NCBI RefSeq assembly: GCF_009646095.1
Contig: NZ_CP045725.1
Span: forward strand, 62,001-126,000
Direction of reading: 5' to 3'
From: Raineyella fluvialis
GTDB taxonomy: Bacteria > Actinomycetota > Actinomycetes > Propionibacteriales > Propionibacteriaceae
Length of the DNA stretch: 64,000 nucleotides
Shown here one piece after another: positions 35,823-51,531 of the stretch. Position 1 is the stretch's first letter, and each line of letters opens with the position of its first letter. Made by a program: the position numbers and the translations under genes. The notes under the pieces were generated by a model, which was given only the letters and a program-made list of their open reading frames with translations, was not told the DNA's origin and made no database searches.

Positions 35823-36709
35823 GAGCGTACGGCACCGCGTCGGGCGACCGTCCGGGTGGCTTGCCGTACGGCCACTGCCGTCGCCTCCTGGACGCCCATG
35901 CCGACGGCCAGACCAGCGGCCAGCACCCCCACGAACGCGTCACCCGCTCCGGCGGCATCGACCACGTGGGTCTGCGCGGCCATCACCACCTCCACCGGGC
36001 GGCGGGACGGTACGACGACGGCGCCCTCGGCGCCCATGCTGACCACGACCGAGCGTCCACGGCTCGCCAGTTCGACCGCCAGGTCCTCGATGTCACCGAC
36101 GTCGTGGGTGACCGGGACCCCACACAGGGCGGCGGCCTCGTCCTCGTTCACCACCAGGACCGCGACCTCGGCGTACAGGGCCGGGTCGATCGGCACCACG
36201 GGTGCCGGGTTGTACACCAGCCGGCCGGGCCAGTCGCGGGCCAGCCGGATCGTCTCCTCGATGACGGCCGGGCCGACCTGCCCCTGCAGCAGCACGACGG
36301 CCGCGGTGGCGAGCCGGTCCGCCACGTCGCGGACCGCCTCCACATCGGTGAGGGCGTTCGCTTCCGGGACGACGACCGTACGCGGTCCGTCGGGGGCTAC
36401 CACGCGATAGCTGTGACCGGTGCGTGCCTCTGGGTGGACCGCCACGAGTTCGGTGGAGACGCCGAAACCGGCGAGTTCGGCGAGGATCTGGCGCCCGTCG
36501 AGATCATCACCGATCGAGGCCACCAGCCGGACCTCCACGCCACTGCGGGCGACGGCCACGGCCTGGTTGGCACCACGGCCCCCGAGCCCGGGCGCTGCGG
36601 GGACGGCGGCGACGACCTCCCCCCGATCCGGGACGTGGTCCACGGTCAGCACGGTCTCCACCGACACGCCTCCCACCACATCGACGCGCGTGGCGGTCTC
36701 GATGGTCAC
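35798..36709 (-). CDS. ribokinase-like PfkB-family kinase
   Basis: About 303 residues. GLGGRGANQAVAVARSGVEV is the ribokinase N-terminal signature (GGKGANQA in most members) and VVDAAGAGDAFVGVLAAGLA holds the anion hole and catalytic Asp. It should phosphorylate ribose or a related pentose with ATP. It stands alone, with a GTG start at 36709, and converges on the acyl-CoA dehydrogenase gene, overlapping its last 25 bases. No ribose transporter lies nearby. Confidence 0.88.
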   Translation of the reverse strand: MTIETATRVDVVGGVSVETVLTVDHVPDRGEVVAAVPAAPGLGGRGANQAVAVARSGVEVRLVASIGDDLDGRQILAELAGFGVSTELVAVHPEARTGHSYRVVAPDGPRTVVVPEANALTDVEAVRDVADRLATAAVVLLQGQVGPAVIEETIRLARDWPGRLVYNPAPVVPIDPALYAEVAVLVVNEDEAAALCGVPVTHDVGDIEDLAVELASRGRSVVVSMGAEGAVVVPSRRPVEVVMAAQTHVVDAAGAGDAFVGVLAAGLAVGMGVQEATAVAVRQATRTVARRGAVRSYPTFEFD

Positions 36710-36835
36710 GGTCGGCCCCCTTAGGTCACAGTGAAGCGGAGTTTAGCCCTGCCTGGTGGCGCTGCCATGGGGGGTTCCGGCAGCGGGAAAGGTCGCTGGA
36801 CGGACCCGCTCCGACGGTGGTGGAGAATAGGCCCC

Positions 36836-38149
36836 ATGGCTTCCACTCTCGAGCGCCCGGCGACACCACCCCGGCTGAGCGCCACCTCCCGGCTGCGCCT
36901 CGCGGCGGCGGTGGGGGCGGGGCAACTGGCCGCTACCCTGTCACGGATCGCGGGCAAGGGATCGGGTGTGTCCGTCCGTGGCCAGGTGATGACGCGGATC
37001 GACCCCGACGCCCTCACCAAGCTGCTGCAGGGCCGCCGGATCGCCGCGGTGTCGGGCACCAACGGCAAGACGACGACCACGCACCTGCTGGCGGCGGCGG
37101 TCCGCGCGGGGCTCGGCCCGCGGGACGCGGACCGGGTCGTGACGAACGCCGATGGCGCCAACCTGCACTACGGCATCGCCTCGGCCCTGTCGCAGTCGCC
37201 CCGCGCGGACATCGCCATCCTCGAGACCGATGAGCGCGTCGTCGCCGACATCGTCCGGCTGGGCCGGCCCGAGGTCCTCGTCCTGCTGAACTTCTCCCGC
37301 GACCAGCTCGACCGCAACCACGAGATCAAGAAGCTGGCCCGGTCCTGGCGCGACGCCCTCGCCGCGGCCGGTGACGACGGCCCGGTGGTCGTCGCCAATG
37401 CCGAGGAGCCGCTCGTGGTCTGGGCCGCCAAGGCCGCGAAGCACGTCATCTGGATCGACACCGCCTCCACCTGGCAGGAGGACGCCATTATGTGCCCCGA
37501 GTGCGGGGCGATCCTCCTGCGTCGCAACCCTCACCCGGAGACCGGCGATCCCGGCGACTGGGACTGCCCCGCCTGCTGGATGAGCGAGCCGATCGCGGTG
37601 ATCCGGGTGGAGAACGGTCAGATCGTCGACCGCCATGGGGTGGCCCACGACCCGCAGCTCCAGGTGCCCGGCGGCTTCAACGTCGGCAACGCCGCCTGCG
37701 CCCTGGCCGCCGCCGAACAGCTCGGCGTGGGCGTGACGGACGCTCTGGCCGGGATGCGGACGGTGACCTCCCCCGCCGGCCGGTTCGCGACGACGCACTT
37801 CGGCACCACCTCCGCCCGGCTCCTGCTGGCGAAGAATCCGGCCGGCTGGCACGAGGCCCTGCCGCTGTTGCAGTCCGACACGGTGGTGCTCGCCATCGAT
37901 GCGGTCGCCGCGGACGGCCGGGACCTGTCCTGGATGTGGGACGTCAACTACGAGCAGCTGGCCGGCAAGAAGGTCATCGCGACCGGCCCACGCGCCCAGG
38001 ACCTCGCCGTCCGACTCGCCTATGCCGAGGTGGAGTGCACGGTGGTGCCCGACCTCGCCACCGCGCTGACCGATCGCGGTGAGCACGTCGACGTACTCTC
38101 GACCTACACCCCGTTCCAGAAGCTGCGCAAGCTCGGAGGCCTGGCATGA
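36836..38149 (+). CDS. murT: MurT, lipid II isoglutaminyl synthase (glutamine-hydrolysing) subunit
   Basis: About 437 residues. A Mur-ligase-like ATPase domain (AAVSGTNGKTTTTHLLAAAV; ILETDERVVADIVRLGRPEV) contains the family's zinc ribbon (CPECGAILLRRNP ... CPACW). The C-terminal DUF1727 domain holds FNVGNAACALAAAEQLGVGV and SWMWDVNYEQL. With GatD it amidates D-Glu of lipid II to D-isoglutamine at the inner membrane face. ATG 36836 begins the conserved region; the upstream in-frame residues lack a ribosome site. gatD follows in an ATGA overlap. Confidence 0.95.
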   Translation: MASTLERPATPPRLSATSRLRLAAAVGAGQLAATLSRIAGKGSGVSVRGQVMTRIDPDALTKLLQGRRIAAVSGTNGKTTTTHLLAAAVRAGLGPRDADRVVTNADGANLHYGIASALSQSPRADIAILETDERVVADIVRLGRPEVLVLLNFSRDQLDRNHEIKKLARSWRDALAAAGDDGPVVVANAEEPLVVWAAKAAKHVIWIDTASTWQEDAIMCPECGAILLRRNPHPETGDPGDWDCPACWMSEPIAVIRVENGQIVDRHGVAHDPQLQVPGGFNVGNAACALAAAEQLGVGVTDALAGMRTVTSPAGRFATTHFGTTSARLLLAKNPAGWHEALPLLQSDTVVLAIDAVAADGRDLSWMWDVNYEQLAGKKVIATGPRAQDLAVRLAYAEVECTVVPDLATALTDRGEHVDVLSTYTPFQKLRKLGGLA

Positions 38150-46237: not shown

Positions 46238-46933
46238 TCAGCGCCCCTCGACCAGCGCCACCAGTGCGTCGGTATCCAGAAGGTCGATGTCGCGGGCGCC
46301 ATGAAGGGCGATCAGGCCGTCCTTGGCCATCCGGGCCAGTGTCCGGCTGAGGGTCTCCGGGGTGGTCCCGAGCAGCGAGGCGACGTCCTTCTTCGCCAAC
46401 GGCAGCGTGAGGCGGACCAGGTCACCGCTCCGCTGCGAGGGCAGGTCCAACAGGTAGTCCGCGAGGCGGACATCGATCTCCGCGGAGGTCGAGGCCGCCA
46501 GCCGGCGCTCCGTCTCCGACAGTCGCCGGCTCACCGTGTTGAGCATGACGAGCCCGATCCCGGGATGGCGGGCGACCAGACCGGCGAGATCCTCGTGGCG
46601 GAAGACGCACATCCGGCTGTCCGTCATCGCGGTGGCCCAGTGATCAGGTCGTTCGCCGGTGAGGAAGGCACCCTCGCCGATGAAGTCCCCCGGCCCGAGG
46701 ACGCGGATCAGCCGCTCCTGGCCCCGGGGAGTGATGCGGACGACCCGGATGCTGCCGCGGTGCACCACCATCAACTGGGACACGGCCTGACCGGCCCGGT
46801 AGATGACCTCGCCCTTCGCCACCGAGGTCGGCACGGCGAGTTCGGCGACCGCTGCCTGGTCCTCCGCCGACAGAGCCTGGAAGATCGGTACATGGCTCAC
46901 GCAGGTGTCACCGCCTCCGGCCGACGTCGTCAT
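46238..46933 (-). CDS. Crp/Fnr family transcriptional regulator
   Basis: About 231 residues. The cNMP-like sensory domain (VIYRAGQAVSQLMVVHRGSI, GDFIGEGAFLTGE) is followed by a helix-turn-helix (LTLPLAKKDVASLLGTTPETLSRTLARM). One Cys near the N-terminus (DTCVSHVPIFQAL) is alone, not the four-Cys Fnr set, so it may sense NO, haem or nothing redox-active by itself. It is divergent from the nitrite-reduction genes and is their likely regulator. A clear FNR-type TTGAT-N4-ATCAA site is not visible between them. Confidence 0.88.
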   Translation of the reverse strand: MTTSAGGGDTCVSHVPIFQALSAEDQAAVAELAVPTSVAKGEVIYRAGQAVSQLMVVHRGSIRVVRITPRGQERLIRVLGPGDFIGEGAFLTGERPDHWATAMTDSRMCVFRHEDLAGLVARHPGIGLVMLNTVSRRLSETERRLAASTSAEIDVRLADYLLDLPSQRSGDLVRLTLPLAKKDVASLLGTTPETLSRTLARMAKDGLIALHGARDIDLLDTDALVALVEGR

Positions 46934-47058
46934 ACCTCCAGCCTCCCACCCGGGCTCCGCCACGGTGGTCCGATCAACCTCGGACCCGTTCTGACCGTCG
47001 ATTGGCCAGCCGCCCCCTGGATTTATACACTACTTCCGTGACTAAAAAGGGAGGCGCG

Positions 47059-48178
47059 GTGCGGGGCACCGACCTGAGGGCGCTGCGGCGCACCCGACTG
47101 GCGATGCTGGTGCCCAGTGGGATCGCGCTGCTCCTCGGTCTCGACGCGGGGCTCCTGCTTCTGGGCCTGCCCGCTCCCCTGGTGGTGACCCGCCTCGCGG
47201 ACGTCCACGGCATGGTGATGACGGTCGGGTTCGTCGGCTCGCTGATCTCGCTCGAGCGTGCCGTCGCCTCCGGAAGGCGCTGGGCGTACGCCGCCCCGCT
47301 GGGCATGTCGCTCGGCGCGCTCGCCGTCCTCAGCCCCGCCCCCTGTGGATCGGCCGCGCGCTGATGCTGGTCGGCGCGGCCACCCTGCTCGCGGTCTACC
47401 TGCCGCTGTGGCGGCGCTCGTACGATCCGGCGGTGGCCATCCAGTTCTCCGGCGCCTTCCTCGGCGTCGGCGCCACCGGACTGTGGCTGACCGGCGTGGA
47501 CATCCCCCGCCTGGTGCCGTGGCTGACCGGCTTCCTGCTCCTCACCATCGCCGGTGAGCGCGTCGAACTCGCCCGGCTCGGCCACCTGACCCTCGACACG
47601 GAGCGTCGCGAGCGCCGGGACGGCCAGGCGCTGCTGCTGGCCCTGCTGGTCGTCCTCGTTGTCGCCTTCGCCACCCTCTACCCGGACGGCGGGCTGCCCG
47701 CGTTCGGAGTGGTCCTCATCCTCGTCGCGGCCCTCTACGGCAGCCGGGACATCGCCCTGCGCACCGTACGTTCCACCGGGCTGCCACGGTTCAGCGCCGC
47801 CTGCCTGCTCGCCGGGTACGCCTGGCTGATCGTTGCGGGGCTGCTGTGGCTGCGGCCGGCGCTGTCAGGTCTGCACTACGACGCCGTGCTGCACGCCACC
47901 TTCCTCGGGTTCGTGATGTCGATGATCCTCGCCCACGCCCCGGTGATCCTGCCCGCCGTGTTGCGTCGCCCCTTGCCCTACACCCCGCGTTCTGGGGCGT
48001 CGCGGTGCTGCTGCACGCGTCGCTGCTGGTGCGGGTGGTCGCCGACCTGGTCGGCAACGAGCCGGTGCGCGCCGTCGCCGGCACCCTGAATGTGCTGTCA
48101 CTGCTGGCGCTCGTCGCCACAACCATCGCCAGCAGTGCCGGCGCAACAACCACCATCGCCCGCGGCCAGGAGGCCTGA
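47059..48178 (+). CDS. polytopic membrane protein paired with the NirK fusion, two frameshifts
   Basis: About 373 residues when repaired, with about eleven hydrophobic helices (LAMLVPSGIALLLGLDAGLL, MLVGAATLLAVYLPLW, FVMSMILAHAPVILPAVL). His residues in ADVHGMVMTVGF, HYDAVLHATFLGF and LAHAPVI could bind haem, as in haem-copper-oxidase-like or NnrS-like membrane proteins, but I cannot name a family. Frame breaks lie at the C runs 47339-47343 and 47976-47978. GTG 47059 follows GGGAGG; GTG 47038 is an alternative and could be leaderless because TATACA lies just before it. The NirK fusion starts two bases after its stop. Confidence 0.78.
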
Positions 48179-48180
48179 CA

Positions 48181-50930
48181 GTGCAGATCTCGTCGCCGGA
48201 CACCACCGCACCGGGCCCCGAGCGGCGCCCGACCGGACGCCGCCGTCGGATGCTGCTGCGCTCGGTGCCGATGTTCGCCTGGCTGGTGGCCGACGTCGCG
48301 ATCGTGCTGTCCCACCGGTTCGTCCCCGAGCCGCGTTGGCTGATGGTCCATCTGCTGCTGCTCGGCGCGGTCTCCAACGCGATCATCGTCTGGTCCGGCT
48401 ACTTCACCGACGCCATCCTGCGCGGAACGGGCGACCACGGCCGCCGCGACACCGCGATCCTGGGCCTGCTCAACCTCGGCGCGATCGGCGTCGTCGCGGG
48501 GCTCGTCGCCGACAATCGACCGTCGTTGTGGATCGGAGCCACACTGGTGGGGCTCGCCGCGGTCGCCCACGCCGTCACCCTGGCATTCAGGGTGCGCGCC
48601 TCCCTCCCGGCCCGGTTCACCATCACCGTGCGCTACTACGTGAGCGCCGCCCTGATGCTGCCCGTGGGCGCCTGGCTGGGAACGCGGCTGGCAGCCGTGC
48701 CCGACATGGGTGCGGAGCACGCCCGCTACCTGCTGGCGCATCTGGCCCTCAACCTCCTCGGCTGGGTCGGCCTCACCATCGCCGGCACGGTGATCACGCT
48801 GTGGCCGACCATGCTGCGGACCCGCGCCGACGACGCGACCGTCACCGTCGGTCGTCGCGCCTGGTGGCTGCTCGCTCCGTCGACGGTGCTGCTCGCCGCG
48901 GGGTCCCTGGCGGGACTGCGCTGGGTCGCCGTTCTCGCCGCCCTCGGCTACCTCGCCGGCCTGGCCCTGATCGCCGTGCCGCTGACGCGCGAGGCCCTGG
49001 CCAAGCGTCCGTACGACTTCGGCACCTGGTCGATGCTCGCGGGGCTGCTCTGGTGGGCCGGCTGCGTCGCTGCCGTAGCGGTCGACCTCACCACCGCGAA
49101 GGACCTGGCTGCCGGCGTCGAGGGGCTGCACGCGCTGACCGGACCGTTCGCCGCCGGCTTCGTCGCGCAGGTCCTCTTCGGCGCCCTGAGCTACCTGCTG
49201 CCCGTCGTCGTCGGTGGCGGCCCGTCGATCGTCCGCAGGACCACAGCCGTCGCCGACCAGGCCTCGGTGGCCCGGGTGGTGCTGGCGAACGCCGCCGGAC
49301 TGGTCTTCCTGCTGCCGGTGCCCAGCCTGGTCAAGGTCACCACGTCGATGACGGTCTACGTGGTGATGGCCTGGACGATCGGTGTCCTGATCGCGACTGT
49401 CATCACGGGTGTCCGACGGGTGCGTCGGCGCGACGGGGTGGCCCCCGAGCCGCCGCGTCCCGAGGACGCGCTCACCCGCCGCCGGCGGGGTCAGGGCCAA
49501 CTCGCCGCCGCCGTCGGCGTCCTCGCTCTCCTCGTCATGGTGGCCGGCATGGTCGACCCCGTCGCGGTGGTCCGCGCGCCGAAGCAGGCCGCTGTTCCGG
49601 GGACCGCGAATGTCACCCCCACCGGGCACACGACCACCGTGGGCGTGACGGCCGCTGACATGAAGTTCACCCCCTCGACGATCCCCGTGCCCCTGGGTGA
49701 CCATCTCGTCCTCCAGGTGACGAACTCCGATTCCAAGGGCCAGACCCACGACCTCACCCTGGCCAACGGCTTGACCACCGGTCGGGTCGCCCCCGGCCAG
49801 ACGGCGACCCTCGACGTGGGTGTCGTCAGTGGCTCGATCGCCGGGTGGTGTTCGGTCGCCGGTCACAAGCAGATGGGGATGACCCTGAGCATCACCACCA
49901 CCGGGGGGTCGGCGTCCTCGACCGGTTCTCCGGCCGCCTCGGGATCGGGCGGGACGGGATCGACCGGGTCGATGGGGTCCATGACCATGGGCCAGACGGC
50001 CGCCACCGCCGGTCCCGACGCGGTGTGGAACCGCAACGCCTCCCCGCGGCCGGGTGGACAGCGTACGATCCGACGCTGCCGCCTGTCGGGGAGGGCACCA
50101 TCCACAAGGCCACGTTCACCGTCAAGGAGGCCCAGCAGGAGGTGGCGCCCGGGGTCACCCAGCAGGTCTGGACCTTCAACGGGACCGTACCCGGCACCAC
50201 GCTGCACGGGCGGGTGGGCGACACGTTCGAGATCACCCTCGTCAACGACGGCAGCATGGGCCATGGCATCGACTTCCACGCCGGGGCACTCGCGCCGGAC
50301 GAGCCGATGCGGACGATCCAGCCCGGCGAGAGCCTCACCTACCGTTTCACCGCGACGAAGGCGGGGGTGTGGATGTACCACTGCTCCACCATGCCGATGT
50401 CGCTGCACATCGCCAACGGCATGTACGGCGCCGTAGTGATCGATCCGCCGGACCTGCCGCCGGTCGACCAGGAGTACCTGCTGGTCCAGGGCGAGCAGTA
50501 CTACGGACCGGCGGGCGCCCCGGGCAACGCCGACAAGATCGCCGCCCGCACGCCGGACGCCGTGGTCTTCAACGGTTACCCGAACCAGTACGACCGCACG
50601 CCGCTGACGGCGAAGGCGGGACAGCGGGTGCGGATCTGGGTGCTGGATGCCGGACCCAACGAGTCCTTGGCCTTCCATGTCGTCGGCGCGCAGTTCGACT
50701 CGGTGTGGAAGGAGGGCGGCTGGTTGCTGCGCTGCGGTCAGGCGCCGGGCCAGGCGAGCGGTGCCTGCACGAAGCCGGGCATCGGCGGCAGCCAGACCCT
50801 GGACCTGCTGGCCAGTCAGGGTGGCTTCGTCGAGCTGTCACCTCCGGCCGCAGGCCACTACTCCGTCGTCAACCACGAGATGACGCTGGCGGAGCGCGGG
50901 GCCCACGGGGTGCTGGCGGTCACCGGCTGA
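48181..50930 (+). CDS. nirK: membrane domain-cupredoxin-copper nitrite reductase (NirK) fusion, one frameshift
   Basis: About 916 residues after adding one C at 50042-50045. (1) Residues 25-450: about ten to twelve membrane helices, with conserved His in RYLLAHLALNLLGWVGLT. (2) Residues 483-573: a cupredoxin with Cu ligands His in TTHDL-like GQTHDLTLA and Cys-His-Met in GWCSVAGHKQMGM. (3) A Gly/Ser/Met linker. (4) Residues 625-916: NirK, with type 1 and type 2 ligands in GHGIDFHAG, MYHCSTMPM and MSLHIANGM, the catalytic Asp in IDFH and His in LAFHVVGAQ, and the last type 2 His in VVNHEMTLA. It should reduce nitrite to NO outside the membrane, taking electrons through its own cupredoxin. Confidence 0.88.
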
Positions 50931-51006: not shown

Positions 51007-51531
51007 ATGGATCTGCGAGCCTTCTACGTCCTGATGGCCGCCACCAGCTTCACCCTGGTCGGCCTGTGGTGGACGGTGATCCAGAAGCATCCGGACTGGA
51101 AGTCCTCCCCTCGGCAGCGGGCTCTGGCGGGTGGCACCTACCTGTCCTTCCTGCTGCCCGGGCTGATGGCGACCTTGGCGCAGGTCGCGCCGGGCACGCC
51201 GGCCCTGTGGCGGATCAGCTTCGGCGCCGCCGCGCTCGTCGGCCTCTGGTCGACCGTCCGTCTCCTCCGGACCGACAAGGCCGGGTCCCGGGGCCCGTTC
51301 CGTCGCCACCGCTGGGTCGTCACGCTGATCTACCTGGCGATCCTCGTCCTGGGGGTGGCGCCCGAGCTGGCACGGCGGGCGGGTCTGGCACCACTGGCCG
51401 TCGGCGGTGTCCTCCTGGTGCTCCTCATCGTGTTGGCCCATGGGCTGACCTGGGAGTTCATGATGGAGCCCGACGAGCCAGTGGACGCGGCTCCGACGCC
51501 CCCGAGCCCGACGCCCGGTCCTGACCGGTGA
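51007..51531 (+). CDS. small membrane protein after nirK
   Basis: About 174 residues with four predicted membrane helices (FYVLMAATSFTLVGLWWTVI, TYLSFLLPGLMATLAQVAPG, ISFGAAALVGLWSTVRLL, GGVLLVLLIVLAHGLTWEFM) and a charged loop between helices 3 and 4. The C-terminus is acidic and proline-rich. I do not recognise a family. It starts 76 bases after the NirK fusion on the same strand and may be expressed with it. Confidence 0.7.
   Translation: MDLRAFYVLMAATSFTLVGLWWTVIQKHPDWKSSPRQRALAGGTYLSFLLPGLMATLAQVAPGTPALWRISFGAAALVGLWSTVRLLRTDKAGSRGPFRRHRWVVTLIYLAILVLGVAPELARRAGLAPLAVGGVLLVLLIVLAHGLTWEFMMEPDEPVDAAPTPPSPTPGPDR

What the first reader, a model, noticed from the sequence alone, without database searches (positions are those of the whole stretch)
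48181..50930. Copper nitrite reductase fused to a cupredoxin and a polytopic membrane domain
One frame (after a single-base repair) encodes about 425 residues of membrane helices, a type 1 cupredoxin with a full His/Cys/His/Met ligand set, a flexible linker, and a NirK with all type 1 and type 2 ligands and the Asp/His catalytic pair. Ordinary NirK is a soluble trimer fed by separate azurin or cytochrome c. Here donor, enzyme and a possible quinol-oxidising or haem-binding membrane part are in one chain, so the route from quinol to nitrite could be self-contained. The preceding membrane protein starts the operon and may complete it.
Basis: partly seen in the sequence, partly recalled or inferred. 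Interest (0 to 1): 0.75.

Follow-up and report, generated by a model that had tools for sequence, protein, structure and literature searches.

The report
Nitrite reductase fused to membrane partner
A copper enzyme that turns nitrite into nitric oxide is joined in one protein to a small copper electron carrier and a large membrane part; the joined form was already known in related bacteria, but the membrane part, so far without a function, looks like a stripped-down relative of the respiratory oxidases and may feed the enzyme its electrons.

Summary
48181-50930 encodes about 13 membrane helices, a type 1 cupredoxin and a copper nitrite reductase (NirK) with all ligands, interrupted by one frame break near 50043-50055. 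Two same-genus genomes carry it unbroken. The upstream membrane gene U (47002-48178) is broken twice. Sequencing error or recent decay: undecided. The architecture is published: Propionibacterium acnes NirK has a 400-residue membrane domain 'of unknown function' plus a cupredoxin (PMC4770552, passages). What I add concerns that domain. Profile comparison (89%; highest background pair 18%), three weak COX1 matches and a modest-confidence fold model (top hit NorB) suggest a divergent relative of haem-copper-oxidase subunit I without the oxygen-reducing centre. Two histidines are invariant (64 of 64); one aligns with the low-spin-haem ligand of helix 2. Among 396 phylum genomes it occurs in 40 of 52 with NirK (7 expected). 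Some unfused copies lie beside separate NirK genes. U is weakly NnrS-like. Best reading: a haem-b membrane module passing electrons from quinol through the cupredoxin to NirK; haem and quinol binding are inferred.

The parts
47002..48178 (+). Gene U: conserved polytopic membrane protein next to the nirK gene, weakly NnrS-like; in this window broken into three frames (pieces 47002-47364, 47364-about 47987, about 47969-48178)
   Evidence: tblastn to siblings, identity 71-88% to L025; siblings intact in one frame; breaks placed; three invariant His in 23 homologs (A3); NnrS weak
48181..49431 (+). Twelve-helix membrane domain (residues 1-417), probably related to haem-copper-oxidase subunit I
48349..48351 (+). 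H57, invariant histidine, outer end of helix 2
   Evidence: 24 of 24, 64 of 64
48739..48741 (+). H187, invariant histidine, outer end of helix 6; aligns with the helix-2 low-spin-haem histidine of haem-copper oxidases
   Evidence: 23 of 23, 64 of 64; alignments
49459..49551 (+). Helix 13, leads out to the cupredoxin
   Evidence: AF2 helix 427-457; charge pattern of loops
49600..49899 (+). Type 1 cupredoxin, ligands H523, C557, H562, M567 (CX4HX4M)
   Evidence: PF13473; the four ligands each 22 of 22; coordinates
49900..50042 (+). Gly/Ser/Met-rich linker
   Evidence: sequence
50043..50055 (.). Frame break within the fused gene in this assembly
   Evidence: tblastn of the unbroken sibling ORF
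50055..50930 (+). NirK domain with complete type 1, type 2 and Asp/His residues
   Evidence: TIGR02376, PDB search, residue positions
46238..46963 (-). Divergent Crp/FNR-family regulator, kept beside the operon in the two matching siblings
   Evidence: PF00027, PF13545; hits in L025 and L026

Best explanation
In its intact form this is a membrane-anchored, self-contained electron-delivery and nitrite-reduction protein. The 12-helix domain has the fold of haem-copper-oxidase subunit I but no CuB or high-spin haem site. It most likely holds one low-spin haem b between H57 (helix 2) and H187 (helix 6) in the outer half of the membrane, takes electrons from (mena)quinol there, and hands them to the type 1 copper of the tethered cupredoxin, which passes them to NirK, where nitrite becomes NO. 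U is probably an NnrS-like haem/NO-handling partner. SHOWN by computation: domain order, complete copper ligands, two invariant histidines, co-occurrence with NirK. SUPPORTED but not proved by computation: outward placement of the soluble part, remote relation to haem-copper oxidases. INFERRED: haem b, quinol oxidation, direction of electron flow, role of U. UNDECIDED: whether the copy in this strain is truly broken.
For: Profile comparison of the membrane family (64 sequences) with 40 haem-copper-oxidase subunits I gives 89% over 194 columns. Controls for the family: MFS 0.65%, NnrS 0.3%, reversed sets 0.1-1.5%. The middle four-helix repeat against oxidase helices 1-4 gives 93.9%, with H187 on the helix-2 haem histidine. 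A PF00115 search rings weakly on three places that the family model also finds (E 1e-7 to 2e-5, below the cut-off). The AF2 model of the membrane domain lists NorB 4xyd (rank 1), NorB 3o0r (rank 3) and CcoN 3mk7 (rank 4), TM 0.45-0.50. Loop charges mostly alternate as expected for the cupredoxin outside. No Asp/Glu reaches 80% conservation in helices 1-12, so no proton channel is evident. Membrane family and NirK co-occur: 40 genomes have both, of 54 and 52 among 396, Fisher p 3e-32, kinship not corrected; fused or within 5 kb in 15 of the 40. Unfused family members lie beside NirK that passes the naming cut-off (L124, L126), and one lies three genes away from NosZ (L118). L126 and L122 NirK carry a cupredoxin at the other end. 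The host's PF13442 matches above the cut-off are two tandem domains of one 287-aa frame (PF00034 not searched).
Against: No Pfam COX1 hit in any of the 23 members of A1 at E up to 10. Against single oxidase groups the profile signal is uneven: cbb3-like 69%, aa3 0.8%, NOR-like 2%; repeat 2 alone: 67%, 2.4%, 8%. AF2 models are of modest confidence (mean pLDDT 70.2 and 67.6, 7 and 4 sequences) and no Foldseek match reaches E 0.001; rank 2 of the domain search is an unrelated receptor. One of the three weak COX1 places (G098) is a 150-aa frame and could be a true oxidase fragment. The step that puts H57 on the second His of oxidase helix 10 has only 15% probability, and in the alignment of repeat 1 with repeat 2 H57 and H187 are two columns apart. 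No quinol site was found. In the Hyphomicrobium three-domain enzyme the extra cupredoxin is reported as too far from the core, and its mutant as more active (quoted in PMC4770552). 14 of 54 genomes with the membrane family have no NirK match. The copy in this strain is broken.
Confidence: 0.5

Rival explanations
1. The membrane domain is an anchor and docking part only; electrons reach the cupredoxin from the bc1 complex and its fixed dihaem cytochrome c, as has been assumed for actinobacterial NirK.
For: PMC6349771 (passages) treats the bc1 complex as the route to NirK in Intrasporangium calvum. The host has one protein with two cytochrome c domains (C1:2529239-2529754) about 5 kb from an oxidase gene that I read as aa3-type by eye (C1:2522496).
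Against: A mere anchor would not be expected to keep two histidines invariant in 64 of 64, nor an oxidase-like fold. Unfused copies persist beside NirK.
Confidence: 0.25
2. The membrane domain (with NnrS-like U) binds or removes NO made by NirK, rather than donating electrons.
For: Best fold matches are NO reductases; U is weakly NnrS-like; NnrS lies directly beside nirK in Sinorhizobium pSymA.
Against: The CuB/high-spin-haem ligands of NO reductases are absent: no column with 8 or more His in helices 7-12, and Q330 of helix 10 is invariant (24 of 24). The host has a separate COX1-family protein of 828 aa, NO-reductase-like by eye.
Confidence: 0.12
3. The membrane pair loads copper or haem into NirK (assembly factor).
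For: Association with several copper enzymes (NirK, a multicopper oxidase, NosZ); near-invariant outer H45 close to H57.
Against: A fixed fusion to every enzyme molecule seems wasteful for a loading factor; no Met or Cys of helices 1-12 reaches 80% in the list.
Confidence: 0.08
4. In this strain the operon is a recent pseudogene and does nothing.
For: Three breaks within about 3.9 kb, two in U and one in the nirK gene.
Against: dN/dS against L025 is 0.16-0.22 in the broken genes, 0.15-0.43 in the five neighbours. Each break lies by a run of 4-5 C, where indel errors are common (recalled); such runs are frequent here, so this is weak. It says nothing on the intact family.
Confidence: 0.35

Closest known systems
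Propionibacterium acnes NirK and other actinobacterial NirK of 700-990 aa (Decleyre 2016, PMC4770552, passages; that Ellis 2007, its reference 20, was the first report is my inference, only the reference entry was seen)
   Same: 400-residue membrane domain, cupredoxin with CX4HX4M, NirK core, about 900 aa
   Different: Window copy is interrupted by a frame break; the passages read leave the membrane domain without a function
Corynebacterium pseudotuberculosis NirK, 882 aa (PMC5338063, passages)
   Same: About 500 N-terminal residues with 13 predicted helices, conserved copper sites
   Different: No cupredoxin or oxidase relation noted in the passages read
Hyphomicrobium denitrificans three-domain NirK (PDB 2dv6; organism recalled)
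   Same: N-terminal cupredoxin fused to NirK
   Different: No membrane domain; hexamer (from the title of reference 23 in PMC4770552)
NorB and CcoN (haem-copper-oxidase subunit I)
   Same: Predicted 12-helix fold; helix-2 type haem histidine (H187)
   Different: No CuB histidines, no helix-10 HxH; below the PF00115 cut-off
NnrS (PF05940), for gene U
   Same: Weak, nearly full-length Pfam match; a C-terminal His motif aligned
   Different: Below the cut-off; profile comparison only 44% over 113 columns

Membership tests
[quoted passage not shown]
   All present in window
Copper nitrite reductase (NirK) | Best sequence matches are copper nitrite reductases | tested here: met
   6the E 1.6e-44 and others
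Copper nitrite reductase (NirK) | NCBIfam TIGR02376 naming cut-off (296.3 bits), a naming threshold rather than a biological feature | tested here: not met
   150.9 bits; 5 of 52 matching phylum genomes pass it
Copper nitrite reductase (NirK) | Nitrite reductase activity | not testable with these tools
   -
Actinobacterial membrane-fused NirK (about 900 aa) | About 400-residue membrane domain, CX4HX4M cupredoxin, NirK in this order | tested here: met
   intact in two siblings
Actinobacterial membrane-fused NirK (about 900 aa) | One unbroken reading frame in this genome | tested here: not met
   Break near 50043-50055
Haem-copper oxidase subunit I (PF00115) | 12-helix fold of the family | tested here: inconclusive
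   Predicted fold: NorB rank 1, TM 0.46, E 8.5e-3, pLDDT 67.6; profile 89% with the pooled set
Haem-copper oxidase subunit I (PF00115) | CuB ligands (helix 6 His, helix 7 His-His) and helix 10 HxH | tested here: not met
   No such conserved His
Haem-copper oxidase subunit I (PF00115) | Pfam gathering score | tested here: not met
   No hit in 23 members of A1; three relatives below the cut-off
NnrS (gene U) | Pfam gathering score 28 bits | tested here: not met
   12.8 bits for member 1; 2 of 23 members listed, best E 5.2e-4

The most novel reading that the evidence does not exclude
An oxygen/NO-reductase fold that has lost its catalytic centre and been turned round into a general haem-b quinol dehydrogenase for outward-facing cupredoxin reductases (NirK, perhaps NosZ) in Actinomycetota. 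The low-spin haem site would be rebuilt between repeats 1 and 2 instead of repeats 1 and 3, giving a bc1-independent quinol-to-nitrite route in one polypeptide.
Probability: 0.35. Interest if true: 0.75.

Novelty: new member of a known kind. Interest (0 to 1): 0.48.

Why it matters
The membrane-fused NirK of Actinomycetota was in print by 2016 at the latest, with a membrane domain left without a function. Placing that domain among the haem-copper-oxidase relatives, and naming two histidines, turns 'unknown function' into a testable claim. It also bears on energy use: a direct quinol route would bypass the bc1 complex, which PMC6349771 takes to be needed for NirK in an actinobacterium, and would change the expected proton yield of nitrite respiration.

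Tried and rejected
Considered and rejected: (1) a novel fusion: rejected by print. (2) MFS-type transporter for the membrane domain: profile 0.65% for the whole family, 3.5% for the unfused part. (3) NnrS for the membrane domain itself: 0.3%. (4) An FNR-type box before the operon: the pattern with up to 1 mismatch gave 5 sites in the window, 4.2 expected, none at 46963-47060. (5) Downstream ORF 51007-51531 as part of the operon: no tblastn hit at 1e-3 in the 39 loci searched. (6) NCBIfam on the 23 members of A1: SCO2097 family in 10 of 23, best E 4.1e-4, taken as chance.

Searches in print behind 'not found': (one open-licence library; many subscription papers missing). In the listings and passages seen, nothing gives the membrane domain a haem-copper-oxidase relation. 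Papers: passages only of PMC4770552, PMC5338063, PMC8756737, PMC6349771 and PMC8301774; the rest as search listings.

Rows dropped: five '-' strand loci were first read in the wrong orientation and redone. Oxidase set: 40 of 47 fetched proteins kept; L156, L167, L168 were wrong frames, L175 and L176 too long, L178 and L189 put in no group; the split into aa3, cbb3-like and NOR-like was by eye. MFS control: 22 of 25 loci kept. NnrS set: 14 proteins. Other-class neighbourhoods: 20 loci fetched out of the matching genomes, not all. In one search some sibling ORF matches are shadow frames (for example the MFS region) and were ignored.

Full report
WHAT IS THERE. The frame 48181-50436 encodes a GTG-started chain of about 13 membrane helices and a cupredoxin; the overlapping frame 49845-50930 encodes NirK. 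The break between them lies near 50043-50055. All copper ligands and the catalytic Asp/His are present, and the best-listed solved structures are copper nitrite reductases. In relatives the same order is one open frame: same-genus G003 (970 aa) and G002 (988 aa), no stops inside; a third same-genus genome, G001, has no match. Of 96 genomes searched, own included, 36 match. Of the 35 other loci fetched, 30 have membrane domain and NirK in one ORF, 2 have a separate NirK within 3 kb (L057, and L048, where the overlapping frames look broken as in the window), and 3 have the membrane part only (L056, L058, L059). Named public loci: Micropruina MAG L002 (fused), Trueperella MAG L003 and Actinomycetaceae MAG L005 (two neighbouring genes), Brevibacterium L004 (one frame with only the last part of the membrane domain, then cupredoxin and NirK).

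THE BREAKS. Gene U (47002-48178) has two breaks and the nirK gene one. Both matching siblings are open at these places. dN/dS against L025 is 0.21 (U1), 0.18 (U2), 0.16 (membrane part and cupredoxin) and 0.22 (NirK); the five neighbours give 0.15-0.43. Against L026 the broken genes give 0.17-0.33 and the two neighbours that found a true partner 0.21-0.23; three other neighbour comparisons found no true partner and mean nothing. So the genes were under normal constraint until very recently, or the breaks are errors. In the same comparison one other frame change was seen, near 36716. I cannot decide without reads.

THE MEMBRANE DOMAIN. Pfam and NCBIfam have no family for it, only scattered weak matches. 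In 24 aligned sequences W34, W53, H57, G62, W71, H187, G194, Q330 and R365, among others, are invariant where covered. With the set enlarged to 64, of which 20 are unfused relatives from other classes, H57 and H187 remain 64 of 64. H45 and H130 are conserved in the NirK-linked set (21 of 23 each) but fall below the listing thresholds in the wider set. Loop charges mostly alternate as for N-terminus inside and cupredoxin outside (inside loops +0.4 to +3.6, outside loops -0.6 to +0.9, so some differences are small), which puts H57 and H187 at the outer ends of helices 2 and 6.

RELATION TO OXIDASES. Four lines, each weak to moderate, agree. (a) hhalign: family against the pooled 40 haem-copper-oxidase subunits I 89%, against cbb3-like alone 69%, against aa3 alone 0.8%, against four NOR-like alone 2%; controls MFS 0.65%, NnrS 0.3%, reversed sets 0.1-1.5%; the highest background pair was oxidases against MFS, 18%. 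(b) Repeat slices: repeat 2 against oxidase helices 1-4 93.9%, against helices 9-12 83%; repeat 1 against repeat 2 91%, against repeat 3 84%, repeat 2 against repeat 3 3.8%; repeat 1 against oxidase helices 9-12 15%; nothing matched helices 5-8; repeat 2 against single groups 67% (cbb3-like), 8% (NOR-like), 2.4% (aa3). (c) The PF00115 search over 60 genomes lists three places that the family model also finds, at E 9.9e-8 (G098, a 150-aa frame, possibly a true oxidase fragment), 4.5e-6 (G096) and 2.0e-5 (G123), all below the cut-off. (d) Predicted fold: NorB, NorB and CcoN at ranks 1, 3 and 4 of the PDB list for the domain alone, E 8.5e-3 to 0.37, TM 0.45-0.50, with an unrelated receptor at rank 2; in the longer model NorB was rank 49, behind cupredoxin matches. 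Against: no COX1 hit among the 23 members of A1; modest model confidence.

HAEM SITE. In oxidases the low-spin haem lies between the helix-2 His and the second His of helix 10 (recalled). H187 aligns with the helix-2 His. H57 falls on the second His of helix 10 in the weak 15% alignment, and is two columns off H187 when repeats 1 and 2 are aligned. If the three repeats are arranged round the same pseudo-threefold axis, repeats 1 and 2 here would stand as repeats 3 and 1 do there. This is an inference; I had no coordinates to measure.

COMPANY IT KEEPS. In 396 phylum genomes the membrane family is found in 54 and NirK (TIGR02376, E up to 1e-30) in 52, both in 40; 7.1 expected, Fisher p 3e-32, not corrected for kinship or for incomplete genomes. 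In 15 of the 40 they are fused or within 5 kb. Of 20 unfused loci from other classes, 6 have a NirK/multicopper-oxidase match within 3 kb and 14 do not. Of the five of these six put to NCBIfam, L124 and L126 pass the NirK cut-off, L122 misses by 1.7 bits, L117 scores 173.7, and L116 is rather a multicopper oxidase. L118 has NosZ with three genes between (763 bits, cut-off 625). L126 and L122 NirK carry a plastocyanin/amicyanin-like domain at the C-terminus, so a cupredoxin has been tied to NirK at either end. U lies just upstream in 21 of 35 relatives. It has three invariant histidines (A3), a weak NnrS relation (Pfam 2 of 23, best E 5.2e-4; profile 44%) and a weak relation to the membrane domain (34%).

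HOW IT LIKELY WORKS. Actinobacteria have few soluble electron carriers outside the membrane (recalled). In this genome PF13442 finds above the cut-off one two-domain protein, and PF00127 one two-domain protein elsewhere; PF00034 was not searched, and PF00127 does not find the cupredoxin of this gene, so other carriers may be missed. A tethered carrier fed from the membrane would solve the supply problem. With no Asp or Glu conserved to 80% in the helices no pumping is expected; quinol oxidation and nitrite reduction on the same face would be electroneutral. NO could then go to a separate NO reductase; the genome has a COX1-family protein of 828 aa that I read as quinol-type by eye only, NCBIfam giving no name.

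WHAT IS KNOWN. The architecture is in print (PMC4770552; PMC5338063). PMC6349771 assumes the bc1 route for NirK in an actinobacterium. My searches of one open library showed, in listings and passages, no paper that relates the membrane domain to oxidases.

VERDICT. The finding as given is correct but not new; the copy here is broken in this assembly. The useful gain is a specific, testable identity for the membrane domain. Interest 0.48.

Noticed in passing
window 36716-36731: Frame change between ORF 35861-36724 and the MurT-like gene 36731-38149, where the sibling has one ORF; a gene boundary or another break.
   Followed up: no
L118:3128-9202: Unfused member of the membrane family with a NosZ (TIGR04246 763 bits) on the same strand, three genes between them (a lyase-like gene, a ZIP transporter and an Rrf2 regulator).
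   Followed up: partly
L198:56-2643: In Sinorhizobium pSymA NnrS stands directly beside a nirK-like gene on the opposite strand.
   Followed up: no
L136, L137 (G182, G152): Genomes with gene U but no membrane-family match; U may have other partners.
   Followed up: no
window 51007-51531: Hydrophobic 174-aa ORF downstream with no match in the 39 loci searched; may be unreal or lineage-specific.
   Followed up: partly
G000:C1:3254277-3255071: One protein with two plastocyanin-type domains elsewhere in the genome; a possible other copper carrier.
   Followed up: no
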